Both the position numbers and the translations under genes were made by a program. DNA of 64,000 bases, from NCBI RefSeq assembly GCF_000474945.1, contig NZ_AXDW01000001.1, positions 434,001-498,000 of the forward strand. The letters are read 5' to 3'. Below the pieces are notes generated by a model. The model saw nothing but the letters and a program-made list of their open reading frames with translations. It made no database searches and was not told the DNA's origin. This DNA is from Solimonas soli DSM 21787 (GTDB lineage Bacteria; Pseudomonadota; Gammaproteobacteria; Nevskiales; Nevskiaceae). Positions 57,044 through 64,000 of this stretch are shown here, piece by piece. How positions within the stretch are numbered: position 1 is the stretch's first letter; each line of letters starts with the position of its first letter.

Positions 57044-57385
57044 ATGAGCAAAACCCTGTTCGAGAAAATCTGCGATCGCGAGATCCCCGCCGACATCGTC
57101 TACGAGGACGAGCTGTGCGTGGCCTTCAAGGACATCCATCCGCAGGCGCCGCTGCACGTCCAGCTGGTGCCGCGCAAGCCGATCACCATGCTCAGCAAGG
57201 CAGACGCCGCGGACCAGGCGCTGCTTGGCCATCTGCTGCTGACCGCACCGAAGATCGCCGCCGCGCAGGGTTACGCGGACACCTTCCGTCTGGCCATCAA
57301 CAACGGCGCCGCCGTCGGCCAGTCGGTGTTCCATCTGCACTTGCATATTCTGGCCGGCCGCCCGTTCAAGTGGCCGCCAGGCTGA
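57044..57385 (+). CDS. hinT: HIT-family nucleotide hydrolase/transferase (HinT-like)
   Basis: A 113-aa protein that likely cleaves purine phosphoramidates. KICDREIPADIVYED, LVPRKPI and the histidine triad HLHLHIL (His97, 99, 101) are intact. The C-terminus is short: after LAGRPFKWPPG the gene stops, where E. coli HinT continues longer. The last 37 bases, including the stop, recur 104 bp downstream and part recurs inverted in between. Confidence 0.93.
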   Translation: MSKTLFEKICDREIPADIVYEDELCVAFKDIHPQAPLHVQLVPRKPITMLSKADAADQALLGHLLLTAPKIAAAQGYADTFRLAINNGAAVGQSVFHLHLHILAGRPFKWPPG

Positions 57386-57490
57386 GCACGGCGCACGCCG
57401 GCCAGAATATGCACTGCGTGCATTGCTTGATCCGATCGCCAAGGCGATCGCGGCTGGCCGGCCGCCCGTTCAAGTGGCCGCCAGGCTGAG
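57342..57490. repeat. Direct and inverted duplication of the HIT gene 3' end
   Basis: Bases 57350-57386 (37 bases) are repeated exactly at 57454-57490. Separately, 57342-57358 (17 bases) recur as a perfect inverse at 57397-57413. The rest of the spacer holds the palindrome CGATCGCC-AA-GGCGATCG (57434-57451). This second copy has no start codon and cannot encode a protein. Confidence 0.95.
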
Positions 57491-57527
57491 ACCCGGAAAA
57501 GAGGACTCAATGTCCTCTTTTCCGGGT
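57491..57527. terminator. Large hairpin after the HIT duplication
   Basis: A 16-bp perfect stem (57491-57506 with 57512-57527), loop TCAAT, includes AAAAGAGGAC/GTCCTCTTTT. Likely the terminator of the HIT transcript, displaced by the duplication; the U-run is inside the stem rather than after it. Confidence 0.6.
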
Positions 57528-57614: not shown

Positions 57615-59240
57615 TCAATACACGTCGCGCCGATAGCGCCCGCTCTCGACGAAGGCGTCGTAGGCCGAAGCGCCCAGAACCTCGCGCAGCACGGCGTCGA
57701 CCGCCGGCGCCATGCCCTCGAGGCTGCCGCAGACCAGCACGTGCGCACCGTCGGCAAGCCAGGCGGCGAGCCGTTCACGCCGCGCGGCGAGCCGCTGCTG
57801 GACATAGACGCGCTCGGCCTGATCGCGCGAAAAAGCGAGGTCGACGTGTTCGATCATCGCCGCACGCTGCCACGCCGCGATCTCGTCGCCGAAGAAGAAA
57901 TCGTGCTGTGCGCTGCGTTCGCCGAACAGCAGCCAGTTGCGGTGCTGTCCGGCGGCGACGCGCGCCTTGAGATGCGCGCGCAAGCCGGCGATGCCGGTGC
58001 CGTTGCCGATCAGGAGCAGCGGCTGGCCGTGATCGTCGAGATGGAAGTTGCGATTGACGCGCACGCGCAGCGCCAGCGCGGCGCCGACCGGCGCATGCGC
58101 GGTCAGCCAGCCGGAGCCGAGGCCGAGACGGCCGGCGGCATCACGCACCTGCCGCACGACGAGTTCGAGCACGCCGTCCTGCGGCAGCGAGGCGATCGAA
58201 TACTCGCGATGCGGCAGCGGCGGCAGACGCGCGAGCCACGCGGTCAGCTCGGCCTCATGCACGACGCCGCGCGCCTCTTCGATCGCCGGCAGCAGGCGAT
58301 CGCGCAGGGCGACACCGACGGCCTGACGCTGTGCGCCCGTGCCGACCATGGCATTGGCGTCGATACCGGCGGCGCACAGCCAGCGCTCGAGCGTCGCGTC
58401 GTCATTGCAGGGGCCGATCTCGACGAGATCGCCGGCGCGCCAGCCGGCGCCCGCCGGCGGTTTCAGCCGGAGATGGAAGGCCGGCGCGCCGAAGCCGCGC
58501 GGATTCAGGCAGCGGCGTTCGAGCAGCTCGGCGCGCTGATAGGCCGGCGCCCGCCAGTCCGCCATTTCGGCGTGGCCGCCGAGTGAACGCAGATGATGCT
58601 GCCAATGGCGCAGGGCGGCGGCGTCGCCCTTGTCGACCTCCACCAGATCGAACAGCGGCTGCGCGCCCGACAGGCGCAGCCAGTGTTCCAGCTGATGACC
58701 GAAGGCACAGAACCGCGCGTAGCTGCGATCGCCGAGCGCCAGCACGCCATAACGCAGCGTGTCGAGCGTGGCGGCTTGCGCCATGGCCCGGCGCACGAAT
58801 CGCCAGGCCGCGTCCGGCGCATCGCCCTCGCCCGTCGTGCTGACGATGAACAGCGCGCGCCGGCCTTGCAGGGCCGCGGCCGTCATGTCGCCCAGCGACA
58901 CCAGTCGCAGGCCGACGCCGGCCGCCTGCAAGGCGGCGGCGGTCTGCCGGGCCAGCTGCTCGGCGAAGCCGGTCTGGCTGGCGTGGACGACGAGGAGGTC
59001 ATCGCCGTCGACAGTCAGCGCCGGCGGCGGCCGGCGCCGGCGCTGCGCGGCAAAGGGAATCGCGCTGCAGCCGAGCCAGACCAGCAGCAGGACGCCGGCC
59101 AGCGCGAGGCGCGCGCACGACGGCGGCGCCGGCGGCGGCGCGGTCTGCACGCCGTGGAGCGCGAACGCGAGCGCCACGAGCAGCAGGCCCAGCAGGGCCT
59201 GCGCCAGCAGGCTCCGGTCGAACGGTCGCGGCATCGTCAT
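57615..59240 (-). CDS. Membrane-anchored CysJ/CPR-type flavoreductase
   Basis: A 541-aa diflavin reductase. Two N-terminal helices (about 10-30 and 44-62) anchor it. Flavodoxin domain (about 80-215): VVHASQTGFAEQLARQTA binds FMN phosphate, with STTGEGDAPD and LALGDRSYARFCAFG. FAD domain (about 235-380): REYSIASLPQDGVLELVVRQV (RxYS FAD motif). NAD(P)H domain (about 395-541): LLIGNGTGIAGLRAHL, LLFGERSAQHDFFFGDEI, VCGSLEGMA and end GRYRRDVY. The connecting domain of full CysJ is shortened. Overlaps apbE (ATGA, 59237-59240). Likely sends NADPH electrons to membrane or periplasmic partners encoded beside it. Confidence 0.9.
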   Translation of the reverse strand: MTMPRPFDRSLLAQALLGLLLVALAFALHGVQTAPPPAPPSCARLALAGVLLLVWLGCSAIPFAAQRRRRPPPALTVDGDDLLVVHASQTGFAEQLARQTAAALQAAGVGLRLVSLGDMTAAALQGRRALFIVSTTGEGDAPDAAWRFVRRAMAQAATLDTLRYGVLALGDRSYARFCAFGHQLEHWLRLSGAQPLFDLVEVDKGDAAALRHWQHHLRSLGGHAEMADWRAPAYQRAELLERRCLNPRGFGAPAFHLRLKPPAGAGWRAGDLVEIGPCNDDATLERWLCAAGIDANAMVGTGAQRQAVGVALRDRLLPAIEEARGVVHEAELTAWLARLPPLPHREYSIASLPQDGVLELVVRQVRDAAGRLGLGSGWLTAHAPVGAALALRVRVNRNFHLDDHGQPLLLIGNGTGIAGLRAHLKARVAAGQHRNWLLFGERSAQHDFFFGDEIAAWQRAAMIEHVDLAFSRDQAERVYVQQRLAARRERLAAWLADGAHVLVCGSLEGMAPAVDAVLREVLGASAYDAFVESGRYRRDVY

Positions 59241-60256
59241 TCGAGCAGCGCCGCCAGCGCCGGCGTGATGCGTTCATGCCAGCGGCCGTCGGCGTCGCGC
59301 CAGACCAGGAGCGCCGCCACGTCATGCCGTCGCGCATAAGCCTCGCCCTGGTCGACGCCCAGCACACCGAGCGCCGTGGCGAGGCCGTCCGCTTGCATGC
59401 AGGAGCGATGCACGACGGTGACCGCCGACGGACCGTCGCGCGGCGGCCAGCCGCTGCGCGGATCGAGGGTGTGCGCGTAGCGGCGGCCATCGCTGTCGAA
59501 ACCGCGCCGATAGTCGCCGGAGCTGGCGATCGCCAGGCCGTGCAGCGCGATCAGCGCTTCCGGCAAGGCGCCGGCGGCCGGCGGGCGTTCGATCGTCACC
59601 CACCAGGGCATGCCATCCGGCTTGCAGCCGCGACCGCGCAGCTCGCCGCCGGCCTCGACCAGATAGTGCTCGACGCCGGCCGCATCGAGCGCCGCGCAGA
59701 CGCGGTCGACGGCATAGCCCTTGGCGATCGCCGACAGATCGAGGCGCAAGCCGCCCGGCTGTCGCGCCCGTCGCTGGCCGGCATCGAAGCGCAGCTTCCG
59801 CCAGCCGCTCACCGCCAGCGCCGCGGCGATGTCGTCGCATGCCGGCGCCGTGGTGCGGCGCGGCTGCGGACCGAAGCCCCACAGATCGACGAGCGCGCCG
59901 GCCGTCGGATCGTAGGCCCCGTCGCTGTCGCGCGCGAGCGCGAGTGCCGCTTCGAGCACCTCGCAGAACGCGGCCGGCAGCAGGTGCCAGCTGCCGGCCG
60001 GCGCCGCGTTGAAGCGGCTCAGCTGCGATGCCGGTTCCCAGCTGCTCATCTGTGCGATGACCAGCGCCAGCTCCGCTTCGATCAGGCCGAGCGCGCGCGC
60101 CTCGCCGACGCCGGGCGCCGGCACGAACGAGACCGTCCAGCTCGTGCCCATGCTGCGCCCCTGCAGGCGGCACACGCCGGCGCCGAGCGGCGGCGGCGCC
60201 GGCATCGCGCTCAAGTCGAGCGGCACGAAGACGTGCCGCTGTGCGGCGGCGCTCAT
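59237..60256 (-). CDS. apbE: FAD:protein FMN transferase ApbE
   Basis: Covalently attaches FMN to Thr in target proteins. It is 339 aa. GRSMGTSWTVSF, DPTAGALVDLWGFG, LDLSAIAKGYAVDRV, VEAGGELRGRGCKPDG and AHTLDPRSGWPP with a late QADGLATALGVLG are family signatures, including metal-site residues. Unlike most ApbE proteins, no signal peptide or lipobox is seen (MSAAAQRHVFVPLDLSA), and no better upstream start is visible. Lies between DUF4198 and the flavoreductase; DUF2271 in the same cluster holds a target motif. Confidence 0.95.
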   Translation of the reverse strand: MSAAAQRHVFVPLDLSAMPAPPPLGAGVCRLQGRSMGTSWTVSFVPAPGVGEARALGLIEAELALVIAQMSSWEPASQLSRFNAAPAGSWHLLPAAFCEVLEAALALARDSDGAYDPTAGALVDLWGFGPQPRRTTAPACDDIAAALAVSGWRKLRFDAGQRRARQPGGLRLDLSAIAKGYAVDRVCAALDAAGVEHYLVEAGGELRGRGCKPDGMPWWVTIERPPAAGALPEALIALHGLAIASSGDYRRGFDSDGRRYAHTLDPRSGWPPRDGPSAVTVVHRSCMQADGLATALGVLGVDQGEAYARRHDVAALLVWRDADGRWHERITPALAALLE

Positions 60257-60293
60257 CGCAGCAGAGGCCGCGCAGTCCGGTCCGGAAGGCCGG

Positions 60294-61172
60294 TCAGGGC
60301 AGGACTTCGAGCGTCGCCGAATAATTCACCCGGCGCGACGGCGCCGCCGCCGCGCCATCCTTGCTCTTCTTGCTGGCGGCGGCCTTCGGCCCGGCAGCGT
60401 CGGGCTTTCCGCCACCTTCGCCCGGCCCCTCCATGCCGCCGCCGAGTGAGGCGTTGAGCCAGTACAGGCCGGCCGCCGGCCAGGTGATCGTGAAGGCACC
60501 GTCGGCCTTCGTCGTGGTCGTGATCTCGCTCTGGCTGTCGCGGTAGCGCGTGCCGCCGGGAATGACCGTCACCTTGATGTCGTTCGCCGGCTTGCCGTCG
60601 AGCAGCAGTTTGAAGGTCGCGGCCTCGCCGGCGACCAGATCGTTCGGGTGCGTGACTGGCATCAGTTCGAGACCGACGCCGGTCGGCTTGAAGACGTCCG
60701 TGCTCGGCTTGCCGACCGTGACGAAGGTCTCGACGCGGTTGACGATCTGCGTCACGCGCAGGTTCTTGGCGCCCTTCGGCACTTCGGTCTTGAACGTCGC
60801 CTCGTTGCCGCGCCAGCGCTTCGGCTGACCGTCCTCCTCCCAGCTGGCCATGACGCCATTGCTCGCCGAGGCGATCCTGTAAGTCCCCGCCGTCTGCAAT
60901 GGCACGTCGAAGCTGCTGCGCAGCTTGCCGCTGAAGACGTTCTCCGGCGTCACCGCGCTGCCGTCCGGCGCGGTGATCAGCAGCGCGTCGAGCTTCATGC
61001 CGTTGTGGTTGAAATAGAACAGATCGTTCGAGACCGCGGCGTCGACCGTGATCCCGTGATCGTTCTCCGTCAGCACCGTCGATGACGGAACGAAAAACTG
61101 CTTGTGTGCCTGCGCGCCCAGCGGCGACAGCGCGACCAGCGCAAGGCAAAGCGTCGTGGTGAAAGTCTTCAT
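60294..61172 (-). CDS. DUF4198 periplasmic protein
   Basis: A 292-aa secreted protein. Signal peptide about 1-22 ends in AQA, leaving His as the likely first mature residue (HKQFFVPS). The body is beta-rich: FKTEVPKGAKNLRVTQ, VGLELMPVTHPNDLVAGEAATFKLLLDGKPANDIKVTVIPGG in part LELMPVTHPNDLVAGE, and TTKADGAFTITWPAAGLYWL. A Gly/Lys/Ala-rich stretch (about 240-275) precedes the last strand. DUF4198 resembles domains linked to nickel/cobalt uptake. Possibly binds a metal in the periplasm. Confidence 0.88.
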   Translation of the reverse strand: MKTFTTTLCLALVALSPLGAQAHKQFFVPSSTVLTENDHGITVDAAVSNDLFYFNHNGMKLDALLITAPDGSAVTPENVFSGKLRSSFDVPLQTAGTYRIASASNGVMASWEEDGQPKRWRGNEATFKTEVPKGAKNLRVTQIVNRVETFVTVGKPSTDVFKPTGVGLELMPVTHPNDLVAGEAATFKLLLDGKPANDIKVTVIPGGTRYRDSQSEITTTTKADGAFTITWPAAGLYWLNASLGGGMEGPGEGGGKPDAAGPKAAASKKSKDGAAAAPSRRVNYSATLEVLP

Positions 61173-61206
61173 GTCTGCACTCCAGGATGTTCGGATGGCG
61201 CCGCGA

Positions 61207-61734
61207 TCAGGGCTTGATGTCGAGCGCGACCTTGCCGAGCTCGCTGCTGCCCTGCGCCTGCAGCTGCTGGGCCTTCGACACCGGCCACTGGAACGGAATC
61301 TTCACGAGCTCGCGGCCGCCGGTTTCGCGAGCCGCCTCGACCACCAGCTGATAGTGGCCGGGTGCCAGCTCCGGCAGCGGTCCCTTGCCGCTGACGAAGC
61401 TCAGCGTCTGCTCGCCGACCGGGCGCGTCGCACCGCTGACACCGTCCATCGGCATCTGCAGTTCGCGGCCGGCGCGACGCCACCACTGGCGCAGGTCCTT
61501 GAGCCACTTCGTGCCTTCGCCATTGCGCTTGTCGAGCTCGTACCAGACGGCGAGATTGGCGGCGACGCTCTGATCCTCGCGCTCGATCCACACCGCCACG
61601 TAGGGACGGTGGTACTCGGCGACGTCGAGTTGCGGAATCTGCAGCTTGACGCCGACATCGGCGGCGAGCGCCGGCGCCGACGCCAGTCCGCACAGCGCGA
61701 CGGTCAGAGAAGCACGCATCGGAGGAGTTCGCAT
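61207..61734 (-). CDS. DUF2271 periplasmic protein with flavinylation motif
   Basis: A 175-aa secreted protein from ATG 61734 (MRTPPMRASLTVALCGL, signal peptide to about residue 25). Body: LQIPQLDVAEYHRPYVAVWIER, LAVWYELDKRNGEGTKWLKDLRQWWRR in part WYELDKRNGEGTKWLKDL. DGVSGAT (97-103) fits the ApbE acceptor consensus Dxx(S/T)GA(T/S), predicting FMN on Thr103. C-terminal LVVEAARETGGRELVKIPFQWP. Eleven bases after the PepSY stop. Confidence 0.9.
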   Translation of the reverse strand: MRTPPMRASLTVALCGLASAPALAADVGVKLQIPQLDVAEYHRPYVAVWIEREDQSVAANLAVWYELDKRNGEGTKWLKDLRQWWRRAGRELQMPMDGVSGATRPVGEQTLSFVSGKGPLPELAPGHYQLVVEAARETGGRELVKIPFQWPVSKAQQLQAQGSSELGKVALDIKP

Positions 61735-61745
61735 CGGGGACGCCT

Positions 61746-62381
61746 TCAGTGGAGGAACAACACGATCAGGATGAGAGGAATCAGCAGGCCGAGACCGACC
61801 AGCGGCCAGGTCGCCGGACGGCGCGAAGCGTGCAACTGAAGCAGGAACAGGCCCGTCACCGAGAACAGCACGCAGGCCACCGCGAACAGGTCGATGAACC
61901 AGTTCCATGTCGCGCCGGTGTTGCGGCCCTTGTGCAGATCGTTGAGCCAGGCGATCCAGCCGCGGTCCGTACGCTCGTATTGCCATGCGCCATCCGGCAG
62001 CTCGATCGCCAGCCAGGCGTCGCCGCCCGGACGCGGCAGCGAGACGTACAGCTCGTCCGACGACCACTCGCCGGTTTCGGCATGCGCGCCGATCTCCGCG
62101 GCAAGCCAGGCGCGCAGGGCCGCGGGCAGCGCCGCCCTGCCCTCGCGCACCGGCGCGGCCAGCTCGGCGACAAGGTCTCGCGGCAGCCGACCGTCGCGTT
62201 TCGTCACGATCGGGCTCGCCTTGATCTGCGCGGCGTGATTCAGCGTGATGCCGGTGACCGCGAACATCAGCATCGCGATCAGGCACACGGCCGCGCTGAT
62301 CCAGTGCCACTGGTGCAGGGTCTTCAACCAGTACGCGCGCCGCGCCGGATCGCCGCCCGCGCCGCCTGTCGCCTCGCGCAT
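61746..62381 (-). CDS. PepSY-associated membrane protein
   Basis: A 211-aa inner-membrane protein with three helices: one N-terminal (about 25-47), two C-terminal (about 160-182 and 188-210), and an exported loop between. HQWHWISAAVCLIAMLMFAVTGITLNH has two His near the first helix, and WLNDLHKGRNTGATWNWFIDLFAV in part NDLHKGRNTGATWNWF precedes the second; these histidines are candidates for heme ligands, as in related PepSY_TM proteins. Probable electron conduit in the cluster. Confidence 0.88.
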   Translation of the reverse strand: MREATGGAGGDPARRAYWLKTLHQWHWISAAVCLIAMLMFAVTGITLNHAAQIKASPIVTKRDGRLPRDLVAELAAPVREGRAALPAALRAWLAAEIGAHAETGEWSSDELYVSLPRPGGDAWLAIELPDGAWQYERTDRGWIAWLNDLHKGRNTGATWNWFIDLFAVACVLFSVTGLFLLQLHASRRPATWPLVGLGLLIPLILIVLFLH

Positions 62382-62393
62382 CGGCCGCGCCGC

Positions 62394-62825
62394 CTACGGC
62401 GCCGGCGCGGCCTGCGAAGGATCGGTGACGAAACCGATCTTCGTCAGGCCGGCCTTGCCGGCTTCGCTCATCACCTCGGCGATCACTTCGTAGCGCGTGT
62501 TGCGGTCGGCGTGCAGGTGCAGCTCCGGCGCCGGCTCCTTCTGCCCCGCCGCGCGCAACCGCTCGAGCACGGCGGCGCGATCGAGCTTCTCGCCGTCCCA
62601 GTAGAGTTGGCCGTCGGCGTCGATCGCCAGCTGGACCGTCTCCGCCTTGCTCGCGTTGGCCTCGCTCGACGCCTTCGGCAGATCGATCTTCACGGCGTTC
62701 GTCAGCAGCGGCGCGGTGATGATGAAGATGACGAGCAGCACCAGCATGATGTCGACCAGCGGGATGACGTTGATCTCCGCCATCGGCGTCGAACTGCGGT
62801 TGCCGCTGAAGCTTCCGAATGCCAT
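62394..62825 (-). CDS. exbD: Biopolymer transport protein ExbD
   Basis: Proton-channel partner of ExbB that energises TonB. It is 143 aa. MAEINVIPLVDIMLVLLVIFIITAP carries the essential membrane Asp (Asp25). The periplasmic domain has ADGQLYWDGEKLD and HADRNTRYEVIAEVMSEAGKAGLTKIGFVT in part YEVIAEVMSEAGKAGL. Confidence 0.95.
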   Translation of the reverse strand: MAFGSFSGNRSSTPMAEINVIPLVDIMLVLLVIFIITAPLLTNAVKIDLPKASSEANASKAETVQLAIDADGQLYWDGEKLDRAAVLERLRAAGQKEPAPELHLHADRNTRYEVIAEVMSEAGKAGLTKIGFVTDPSQAAPAP

Positions 62826-62833
62826 GGCGGACC

Positions 62834-63574
62834 TCAGCTGCGCGGCGCCGCGGTCTTGATCGGCGTGACCTGCGCCGACACCGCCGTGTCGATCTTGGCG
62901 CCGGTCGCGAGGAAGGCGAACAGGTCATGCGCGAAGGCATCGAGCTGCGCCAGCGTGACGCGGTTGGCGCGCACGATGAAGTTGTAGCCGAGCACTGCCG
63001 GAATCGCGACCGCCAGGCCGATCGCCGTCATGATCAGCGCCTCGCCGACCGGACCGGCGACCTTGTCGAGCGTGCCGGCGCCGGACATGCCGATCGCCAT
63101 CAGCGCGTGGTAAATGCCCCAGACCGTGCCGAACAGGCCCACGAACGGCGCCGTCGAACCGACCGAGGCGAGAATCGTCAGGCCCGATTCCATCTTCGCG
63201 GTCTCCTCGTCGATCGTCTTGCGCAGCGTGCGCGTGACGAAGTCGCTGGAGCTGCCGGCCTCGTTGAGACGATTGATGCCGTGCCGCTCGTGGTGACGGC
63301 TGGCGAGAATGCCGTGATAGGCGAGGTGCGAGAACGGCTCGTCCGGATGTTCGCCTTCGAGATGCACGGCCACTTCGTTGAGCGACGGTGCGTTCCAGAA
63401 AAAGTCGAGAAAGCGTTCGCTGCGACGGCGCGCGCGTGCATTGGCGATGGCCTTGGTGACGATCAGATACCAGCTCGTCACCGACGCCAGCAGCATGATC
63501 AGCAGAATCGTCCGGGCGACGAAGTCGGCCTGTGCGAAGAAGTGGCCGAAGCCGAGACCTTGCGTTGCGTCCAT
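62834..63574 (-). CDS. exbB: MotA/TolQ/ExbB proton channel protein
   Basis: A 246-aa inner-membrane protein. Three helices; LASVGSTAPFVGLFGTVWGIYHALM and ALIMTAIGLAVAIPAVLGYNF are the pore helices with conserved Thr. N-terminal helix about 20-40. Eight bases before exbD. Confidence 0.95.
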   Translation of the reverse strand: MDATQGLGFGHFFAQADFVARTILLIMLLASVTSWYLIVTKAIANARARRRSERFLDFFWNAPSLNEVAVHLEGEHPDEPFSHLAYHGILASRHHERHGINRLNEAGSSSDFVTRTLRKTIDEETAKMESGLTILASVGSTAPFVGLFGTVWGIYHALMAIGMSGAGTLDKVAGPVGEALIMTAIGLAVAIPAVLGYNFIVRANRVTLAQLDAFAHDLFAFLATGAKIDTAVSAQVTPIKTAAPRS

Positions 63575-63601
63575 GTGTTTACCGTTTGCGCAGCGCCGTT
63601 G

Positions 63602-64000
63602 TCAGCGCTTCTGATTGAGTTCGAACGTGATCGGCACCTTGACCCAGGCCGCCACGGCTTTGTCGCCCTGCTTCGCGGGCACGAAGCGCCAATAGCGCTT
63701 GACGACGTCGATCGCGGCGTCGTCGAGGCGCGAGTGGCCGCTGCTCGATTCGACCGTGACCTTGTCGGCGCGACCTTCCGCGCTGACCAGCACCAGCAGC
63801 ATCACCGTGCCCTGCTCGCGCAGCTTCATCGACATCTGCGGATACTTCGGTCCCGGATTGTTGAGATAGGCCGCGACGAAATTCGGCGGCACCGTCTCCG
63901 GCGGCGCGGCCGGCGCTGCGGGTGCCGGCGTCGGCGGCGCCTGCTCGACCGGCCTCTCGTCCACCGTCGGCTCGTCGAGCGGCGGCGCCGTGATCGCCGC
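63602..64000 (-). CDS. tonB: TonB energy transducer, C-terminal part (cut by window edge)
   Basis: The frame enters from the right edge; the N-terminal anchor helix is outside. Visible: a Pro/Ala/Glu-rich spacer (PPTPAPAAPAAPPETVPPN) and the TonB C-terminal domain NPGPKYPQMSMKLREQGTVMLLV in part YPQMSMKLREQGTVML, then SSSGHSRLDDAAIDVVKRYWRFVPA. Heads the operon tonB-exbB-exbD in the visible part. Confidence 0.95.
   Translation of the reverse strand, partial: AAITAPPLDEPTVDERPVEQAPPTPAPAAPAAPPETVPPNFVAAYLNNPGPKYPQMSMKLREQGTVMLLVLVSAEGRADKVTVESSSGHSRLDDAAIDVVKRYWRFVPAKQGDKAVAAWVKVPITFELNQKR

What the first reader, a model, noticed from the sequence alone, without database searches (positions are those of the whole stretch)
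57615..64000. Probable flavin-based envelope electron-transfer system fused to a TonB locus
Eight consecutive same-strand genes: tonB-exbB-exbD-PepSY-DUF2271-DUF4198-apbE-flavoreductase, with short gaps or overlaps. They combine TonB energy transduction, a PepSY membrane protein with conserved histidines, a periplasmic protein bearing an FMN-attachment motif, the FMN transferase and a membrane-anchored NAD(P)H diflavin reductase. ApbE, flavinylated proteins and PepSY proteins are known parts of extracytoplasmic redox chains. The coherent inference is that cytoplasmic NADPH electrons cross the membrane via PepSY to flavinylated DUF2271 and reduce a substrate, perhaps a ferric siderophore or other metal complex brought in by TonB-dependent receptors. 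The exact role is not established.
Basis: partly seen in the sequence, partly recalled or inferred. Interest (0 to 1): 0.72.

Follow-up and report, generated by a model that had tools for sequence, protein, structure and literature searches.

The report
Iron-uptake operon with flavin-based periplasmic reductase
A bacterium of the Solimonas group carries, in one ten-gene run, an outer-membrane iron-siderophore receptor, its energy supply and a membrane electron chain that probably reduces the imported iron; the parts are known, but having them in one run, with a flavin-attaching enzyme that looks cytoplasmic, is less usual.

Summary
The eight genes are real and correctly placed: tonB (cut by the window end), exbB, exbD, PepSY, DUF2271, DUF4198, apbE and a membrane-anchored CysJ-like reductase, gaps -4 to 37 bases. 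Outside the window the run continues with piuC and a PiuA/Fiu-clade receptor: ten genes behind one upstream region with a Fur-like half-site that occurs once in the genome. Best reading: reductive siderophore-iron uptake, in which NADPH electrons pass through the reductase and a two-haem PepSY protein to FMN-DUF2271 in the periplasm, which reduces iron brought in by the receptor. The core cluster and its iron link are published (PMC8238504, PMC12004947, PMC3751524), and so is the PiuA-PiuC pair. Added here: the two modules sit together in 50 of 105 loci, in three orientations; the exact ten-gene order recurs in five other species-level genomes; and most of 78 cluster ApbEs, with all three ApbEs of this genome, show no signal peptide although their presumed substrates have one. 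Iron reduction, flavinylation, co-transcription and Fur control are inferred. No structure could be predicted.

The parts
63602..64000 (-). tonB (225 aa; start codon at 64279 in extended numbering, outside the window)
   Evidence: PF03544 86.9 bits; frame and start; one of 7 TonB_C matches in the genome
62834..63574 (-). exbB/tolQ-type proton channel (246 aa)
   Evidence: PF01618 117 bits; NCBIfam scores TolQ 186 above ExbB 130, both below their cut-offs; adjacency to tonB favours ExbB
62394..62825 (-). exbD/tolR-type protein (143 aa)
   Evidence: PF02472 118.5 bits; NCBIfam scores TolR 114 above ExbD 90, both below their cut-offs
61746..62381 (-). PepSY_TM_like_2 membrane protein (211 aa), three hydrophobic segments (24-51, 157-175, 188-211); candidate haem ligands H26, H150, H184, H211
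   Evidence: PF16357 278 bits; segments; H26, H150 and H211 in 100% and H184 in 98% of 105 aligned rows
61207..61734 (-). DUF2271 protein (175 aa) with Sec-type leader and flavinylation motif DGVSGAT
   Evidence: PF10029 175 bits; sequence; D..[ST]GA[ST] in 85 of 104 DUF2271 rows and in no row of the other cluster proteins scanned
60294..61172 (-). DUF4198 exported protein (292 aa); leader ends AQA and the mature protein would begin with His
   Evidence: PF10670 194 bits; this His in 102 of 102 aligned rows and invariant in the 51 rows of A1
59237..60256 (-). apbE, FAD:protein FMN transferase (339 aa), no visible signal peptide
   Evidence: PF02424 272 bits; 245 bits to solved FMN transferase 5mgy; leader analysis
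57615..59240 (-). membrane-anchored CysJ-like reductase (541 aa): two hydrophobic segments (7-35, 38-56), flavodoxin domain, NAD(P)-binding domain
   Evidence: PF00258 and PF00175; CysJ-type 6efv 149.5 bits; segments
57493..57527 (.). hairpin between the reductase gene and the convergent HIT gene, terminator-like
   Evidence: long stem, z = -5.9 against 200 shuffles; the terminator scan did not list it (0 found)

Best explanation
It is a reductive siderophore-iron uptake operon. A PiuA/Fiu-clade receptor, energised by the operon's own TonB-ExbB-ExbD, brings a ferric siderophore into the periplasm; PiuC (an Fe(II)/2-oxoglutarate dioxygenase) supports that route in an unknown way. The reductase takes electrons from cytoplasmic NADPH and passes them to the cytoplasm-side haem of PepSY; PepSY carries them across the membrane on two haems, each held by two histidines (H26/H184 inside, H150/H211 outside); the outer haem reduces the FMN on DUF2271, which reduces the ferric siderophore. 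DUF4198, with a His at its mature N-terminus, may hold the released Fe(II), which then enters by FeoB, present elsewhere in the genome. Shown by sequence: gene identities, order, conserved residues, the FMN motif, the Fur-like half-site. Inferred: every electron-transfer step, the substrate, the roles of DUF4198 and FeoB, Fur control and co-transcription.
For: Receptor: 521 bits to 5fok, 484 to 5nec, 412 to Fiu 6bpm, 384 to 5fp1, then 128 for the next family, FhuA. PiuC: 317 bits to solved PiuC 9ghl. The two modules lie together in 50 of 105 loci (two pairs of loci are the same species): PiuC upstream on the same strand 27, downstream 8, opposite strand 15; at least 13 changes of state on the PepSY tree among 91 loci of 14 kb or more. 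Four conserved His near both faces of the membrane in PepSY; FoxB has two haems held by conserved His on each side (passages of PMC13038864; section 10 of PMC11334425). PepSY and DUF2271 are one frame in Pseudoalteromonas sp. NC201 (L177 6923-8053). ATGAGAATCRTTW occurs once in the 4.19 Mb genome, about 115 bases before the receptor gene; read backwards, 0 times. The best Fur-like site reaches p <= 0.05 in 70 of 102 loci. Published: Caulobacter CC_3059-3063, same order of products, listed among iron-responsive and Fur-regulated genes (table passage); insertions in these genes lower fitness in EDTA (passage). FeoB 489 bits.
Against: No experiment on this organism. The window's own best 19-mer Fur score is borderline (13 of 19, p = 0.06) and those shuffles keep base content only; 11 of the receptor-first loci gave no site in the simpler search. 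The promoter scan found nothing, also upstream of the receptor. PepSY matched no solved structure and structure prediction failed, so haem geometry is untested. It has three hydrophobic segments; the FoxB-like proteins have at least four and a large periplasmic cavity. ApbE lacks a visible leader. DUF4198 of Ideonella sakaiensis bound Ni2+ best of the metals reported (section read). In Caulobacter CC3060 and CC3061 are listed with values 0.50 and 0.41 in the table of genes altered in a zur mutant (passage).
Confidence: 0.72

Rival explanations
1. The redox chain handles another metal (nickel, zinc or copper): DUF4198 is a metal carrier with an N-terminal His and the flavin chain sets the redox or ligand state of that metal.
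For: Ideonella sakaiensis DUF4198 bound Ni2+ (Kd 18 nM) through His1 and His18 (section read); a PepSY_TM protein of another subfamily is tied to copper (passages); CC3060/CC3061 are in a zur-mutant table (passage).
Against: Receptor in the PiuA/Fiu clade; iron/Fur listing in Caulobacter and a predicted Fur regulon in Stenotrophomonas (passages); Fur-like sites in many loci. In this clade no conserved His stands near position 18; the conserved second one is H34 (92%).
Confidence: 0.12
2. PepSY is an inner-membrane permease for the whole ferric siderophore and the redox proteins act after uptake.
For: PepSY proteins next to iron-regulated receptors were proposed as permeases (PMC7190382, passages).
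Against: 211 aa with three hydrophobic segments, against 4 to 8 in the proteins; conserved His near both faces; related proteins are described as periplasmic reductases (passages).
Confidence: 0.08
3. The run is two independent transcription units, an iron receptor unit and a general periplasmic redox unit, neighbours for no functional reason.
For: The redox module stands without PiuC in 55 of 105 loci, among them 25 Achromobacter loci; the receptor-PiuC pair stands without it in 7 of 9 loci (one of the 7 is a 4 kb contig).
Against: Gaps of at most 37 bases throughout; repeated co-location in three orientations. The promoter and terminator scan found no site at all, so it does not decide.
Confidence: 0.08

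Closest known systems
PepSY-like flavinylation-associated gene clusters (PMC8238504)
   Same: PepSY, DUF2271 with [ST]GA[ST], secreted DUF4198, ApbE, proposed iron reduction; 2833 clusters with DUF2271, 1500 with DUF4198, and 231 with PF03544 (there called a TonB receptor; Pfam names it TonB C-terminus) (passages)
   Different: Here in one run with receptor, PiuC and a full TonB-ExbB-ExbD set; the reductase is a separate protein; ApbE has no visible leader
Caulobacter crescentus CCNA_03155-03159 (CC_3059-3063)
   Same: Same five kinds of product in the same order; iron/Fur listing; EDTA fitness (passages)
   Different: In Caulobacter cciT-cciO (CCNA_00028-00027) is another locus; here both are one gene run
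PiuA-PiuC / Fiu-YbiX / CciT-CciO receptor-dioxygenase pair
   Same: Receptor in the PiuA/Fiu clade next to a PKHD dioxygenase; a PepSY-TM gene is a known neighbour in under 25% of genomes (PMC12004943, passage)
   Different: Followed by tonB-exbB-exbD and the flavin module; substrate unknown; below the curated Fiu cut-off (594.6 against 686)
Stenotrophomonas maltophilia predicted Fur regulon, SMLT_RS05535-05570 (PMC6240677)
   Same: A table lists a pepSY gene, a periplasmic-protein gene, a receptor, a sel1 gene and piuC with neighbouring locus tags (passage)
   Different: Not discussed as one system in the passages seen; that the periplasmic protein is DUF2271 is my inference from position
FoxB-type PepSY ferrisiderophore reductases
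   Same: Conserved His near both membrane faces; siderophore-receptor context
   Different: Shorter, three segments, no sequence match to solved structures; would act through a separate flavoprotein

Membership tests
PepSY-like flavinylation cluster (PMC8238504) | PepSY-like protein (PF03929 or PF16357) | tested here: met
   278 bits PF16357 and 39.3 bits PF03929, both over cut-off
PepSY-like flavinylation cluster (PMC8238504) | Flavinylation substrate with [ST]GA[ST] | tested here: met
   DGVSGAT in DUF2271
PepSY-like flavinylation cluster (PMC8238504) | ApbE or substrate within five genes, at least one with a predicted signal peptide | tested here: met
   apbE two genes after DUF2271; DUF2271 leader read by eye, no SignalP on hand; ApbE itself shows none
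PepSY-like flavinylation cluster (PMC8238504) | Covalent FMN on DUF2271 | not testable with these tools
   Shown for the Amantichitinum ursilacus homologue in PMC8238504 (passage)
PiuA-PiuC pair | Receptor of the PiuA/Fiu clade | tested here: met
   521 bits to 5fok against 128 to the next family; that 5fok is P. aeruginosa PiuA and 5fp1 A. baumannii PiuA is recalled
PiuA-PiuC pair | PKHD dioxygenase with HxD...H | tested here: met
   375.9 bits, cut-off 336; H96, D98, H159 in all 50 aligned rows
Fiu (NCBIfam NF007349 equivalog) | Score over the curated cut-off | tested here: not met
   594.6 bits, cut-off 686: clade member, not called Fiu
FoxB-type reductase | Two pairs of membrane His for two haems | tested here: inconclusive
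   Four conserved His suitably placed by sequence; no structure obtained
FoxB-type reductase | At least four TM segments and a large periplasmic cavity | tested here: not met
   Three hydrophobic segments, 211 aa
Ni-binding DUF4198 (PMC12537917) | Mature N-terminal His | tested here: met
   102 of 102 aligned rows
Ni-binding DUF4198 (PMC12537917) | Second ligand His18 | tested here: inconclusive
   The window protein has His at mature position 17, not conserved; H34 is 92%; the I. sakaiensis sequence was not compared
Fur regulon | Fur box in the operon promoter | tested here: inconclusive
   Half-site unique in the genome and repeated in some relatives, but 19-mer score 13 of 19, p = 0.06

The most novel reading that the evidence does not exclude
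In this lineage the flavin is attached in the cytoplasm: a leaderless ApbE modifies DUF2271 before or during Sec export, so the flavinylated chain crosses the membrane, and the reduced iron is then handed to DUF4198 through its N-terminal His. That would break the usual picture that exported flavoproteins are flavinylated by an exported ApbE and would recast DUF4198 as a ferrous-iron acceptor.
Probability: 0.25. Interest if true: 0.65.

Novelty: new variant of a known kind. Interest (0 to 1): 0.4.

Why it matters
How Gram-negative bacteria free siderophore iron in the periplasm is only partly known. One gene run that holds receptor, energy module, dioxygenase, electron chain and a possible metal acceptor gives a single genetic unit in which each step can be tested, and it joins two lines of work (CciT-CciO and flavinylated PepSY clusters) that concern separate loci in Caulobacter. 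The leaderless ApbE question is directly testable and bears on exported flavinylated proteins in general.

Tried and rejected
No model and no fold search.

Flavin-free DUF2271: the Gly of the motif is Ser or Ala in 5 of 79 loci with apbE and in 11 of 15 with a reductase but no apbE in the cluster (Fisher p = 7e-8). I do not claim loss of flavinylation: the test ignores kinship; the tree gives one supported independent pair (6 on all branches); the Thr is kept in 99% of 101 rows; an ApbE lies somewhere in each of the 14 of these 15 genomes that I searched; and Gly to Ala lowered flavinylation only to about 50% in a model protein (PMC12052999, passage). The Fisher test was run on a mistyped table and is replaced.

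A second FMN target in the cluster: no D..[ST]GA[ST] in 105 PepSY, 103 DUF4198, 78 ApbE, 56 receptor, 52 PiuC, 17 each TonB, ExbB, ExbD rows, or 21 reductase rows (the coverage filter dropped most reductases, so that gene is little tested).

Reductase-PepSY fusions beside PiuC: none found in 20 PiuC-centred loci.

First neighbourhood tables lost or invented genes through read-through frames and were replaced. Searches used a wrong DUF2271 frame and gave no hit; corrected in 84, 85. The crude leader rule called 56 of 92 DUF2271, 91 of 100 DUF4198 and 7 of 76 ApbE; it missed L127 and flagged L074, L102, L110, which are doubtful, so it is only a rough check. The automatic reading of the two other own ApbEs used a wrong anchor; they were read again. 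Rfam: 0 matches in L002 3000-14500. One FecCD permease in the genome, best model BtuC below its cut-off, role open. PiuC papers with 2-oxoglutarate: 0 held.
Full report
What is there. The window is C1:434001-498000 of a 4.19 Mb genome; the nearest named loci are from Solimonas flava and S. variicoloris (PepSY 81-82% identical). Beyond the window, in extended numbering, lie piuC 64282-64962 and a receptor gene 64976-67339, with gaps of 2 bases (piuC-tonB) and 13 bases (receptor-piuC). Upstream comes an M23 peptidase gene; downstream a hairpin and the convergent HIT gene. Ten genes form one run with gaps from -4 to 37 bases. Co-transcription is inferred.

What the genes are. The receptor belongs with PiuA/Fiu: 521 bits to 5fok, 484 to 5nec, 412 to Fiu, 384 to 5fp1, then 128 to FhuA. 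The dioxygenase is PiuC-like. TonB, ExbB, ExbD, PepSY, DUF4198, ApbE and the two reductase domains pass Pfam cut-offs, DUF2271. ExbB and ExbD score higher against TolQ and TolR models than against ExbB and ExbD ones, all below cut-off. ApbE aligns to solved FMN transferases.

How the electron path could run. PepSY has three hydrophobic segments. H26 and H184 lie beside the arginine-rich ends (positive-inside reading, by eye), H150 and H211 at the other face. H26, H150 and H211 are in all of 105 aligned rows and H184 in 98%. That fits two haems across the membrane, as described for FoxB, but no structure was obtained. In Pseudoalteromonas sp. NC201 PepSY and DUF2271 are one open frame, which puts DUF2271 after the third segment, on the outer side. 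The FMN motif occurs in 85 of 104 DUF2271 rows and in no row of the other cluster proteins scanned, of which the reductase was little sampled.

Neighbourhood survey. In the relatives search (61 genomes, own included) 25 have DUF2271; the 24 others gave the loci. A PepSY search gave 80 named loci, the best 80 of 142. Among 105 loci: PepSY-DUF2271-DUF4198 in order 103; apbE after DUF4198 79; reductase 90; PiuC 50; TonB or ExbB 17. PiuC is in 19 of 24 relatives and 30 of 80 named loci; 25 of the 80 are Achromobacter, none with PiuC in reach. On the PepSY tree (103 rows, quick method) PiuC linkage (45 of 91 loci of 14 kb or more) changes at least 13 times and TonB linkage (15 of 91) 8 times. The exact ten-gene order is in L002, L035/L060, L036/L059, L043, L046 and L093. 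Seen from PiuC: 62 of 185 genomes of the class match, own included; I fetched 20 of the best 24 others, leaving out four. Nine have a receptor beside PiuC: three in the order receptor-PiuC-TonB-ExbB-ExbD without redox genes, two with TonB/ExbB/ExbD genes placed otherwise, two with the redox module, one on a 4 kb contig, one with a weak PepSY hit (22 bits). In the other 11 (39-44% identity) my profiles found no receptor; they are probably other dioxygenases. So the operon reads as a receptor-PiuC-TonB module joined to a flavin module.

Regulation. The upstream region contains ATGAGAATCGTT, plus strand, L002 13455-13466. ATGAGAATCRTTW occurs once in the genome. A like block (AAYGATTCTCA) stands at about the same distance in L035-L038, L047, L050, L055, L057 and the duplicates L059, L060, with variants in L041, L077 and L129 and another site in L039; the simple search found none in L043, L044, L046, L048, L049, L051, L052, L054, L056, L093, L123. 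Best-site scores reach p <= 0.05 in 70 of 102 loci, about 5 being expected; the window's own is p = 0.06. Loci are related, and the shuffles keep base content only. A Fur gene exists. The sigma-70 scan found no site.

ApbE without leader. In 78 cluster ApbEs the stretch before the catalytic core is mostly not hydrophobic; a clear lipoprotein-like leader is seen by eye in L062, L106, L112, L127 and L129, whose titles are of Lysobacteraceae and kin (order recalled). In 19 of 76 an in-frame stop lies within 42 codons of the conserved MGT. Cupriavidus, Sphingomonas and Indioceanicola copies also show none. The genome has three ApbE matches; none shows a leader by eye, while the two FMN_bind neighbours of the other two carry Sec-like and Tat-like leaders. 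The review PMC12052999 says that most ApbEs are exported and names cytosolic ones, one of them acting on a soluble fumarate reductase (passages). A search for five phrases on cytosolic ApbE found only that review. Possible readings: flavinylation before export, unconventional export of ApbE, or a leader that inspection cannot see.

DUF4198. Its mature N-terminal residue would be His in all 102 rows. PMC12537917 (passages, section 6) solved a family member from Ideonella sakaiensis with Ni2+ on His1 and His18 in a facial arrangement and drew on TonB and NikR neighbours; 'PepSY', 'DUF2271' and 'iron' have no hits in its main text as held. In the present clade the partner of H1 may be H34 (92%). 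That the cluster is iron-linked suggests testing Fe(II); this is inference.

What is known already. PMC8238504 (passages) describes the cluster and its iron link and counts 231 clusters with PF03544. PMC12004947 and PMC3751524, passages only, give Caulobacter data; the column headings of the second table were not in the passage. PMC12004943 reports a PepSY-TM gene near cciT or cciO in under 25% of genomes. PMC6240677 lists such genes with neighbouring tags in a predicted Fur regulon. None of the 8 papers listed holds ExbB together with ApbE and DUF2271, so the full ten-gene arrangement seems undescribed in this library; most subscription papers and all supplements were not seen.

Verdict. The whole-operon arrangement and the leaderless ApbE make it a new variant of a known kind; interest 0.4.

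Noticed in passing
G000 C1:337224-338054 (L169), C4:310990-311751 (L170), window 59237-60256: All three ApbE matches of this genome appear leaderless, yet the FMN_bind proteins beside the other two have Sec-like (L172) and Tat-like (L173) leaders.
   Followed up: partly
L039, L042, L044, L045, L052, L054, L067, L101, L126, L134, L138: These clusters have a reductase but no apbE, and Ser or Ala in place of Gly in the DUF2271 flavinylation motif, with the Thr kept.
   Followed up: partly
L178 7689-8231: DUF2271 of an Acidovorax plasmid reads DGVTSPT although an ApbE gene is in the cluster.
   Followed up: no
L177 6923-8053: PepSY and DUF2271 in one open frame on a Pseudoalteromonas sp. NC201 plasmid.
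   Followed up: partly
window 57350-57386 and 57454-57490: Exact 37-base direct repeat: the 3' end of the HIT gene is copied 104 bases downstream.
   Followed up: no
ApbE N-termini, e.g. L046, L104, L123, L135: Many leaderless ApbEs share a start like M[RNQ]RVLIP/LVP/FIP of unknown meaning.
   Followed up: no
L175 3876-9914: A Sphingomonas parapaucimobilis plasmid carries receptor-dioxygenase-PepSY-DUF2271-DUF4198-ApbE with no reductase annotated next to it.
   Followed up: no
G000 whole genome: Seven TonB_C matches: TonB systems beside the operon's own.
   Followed up: no
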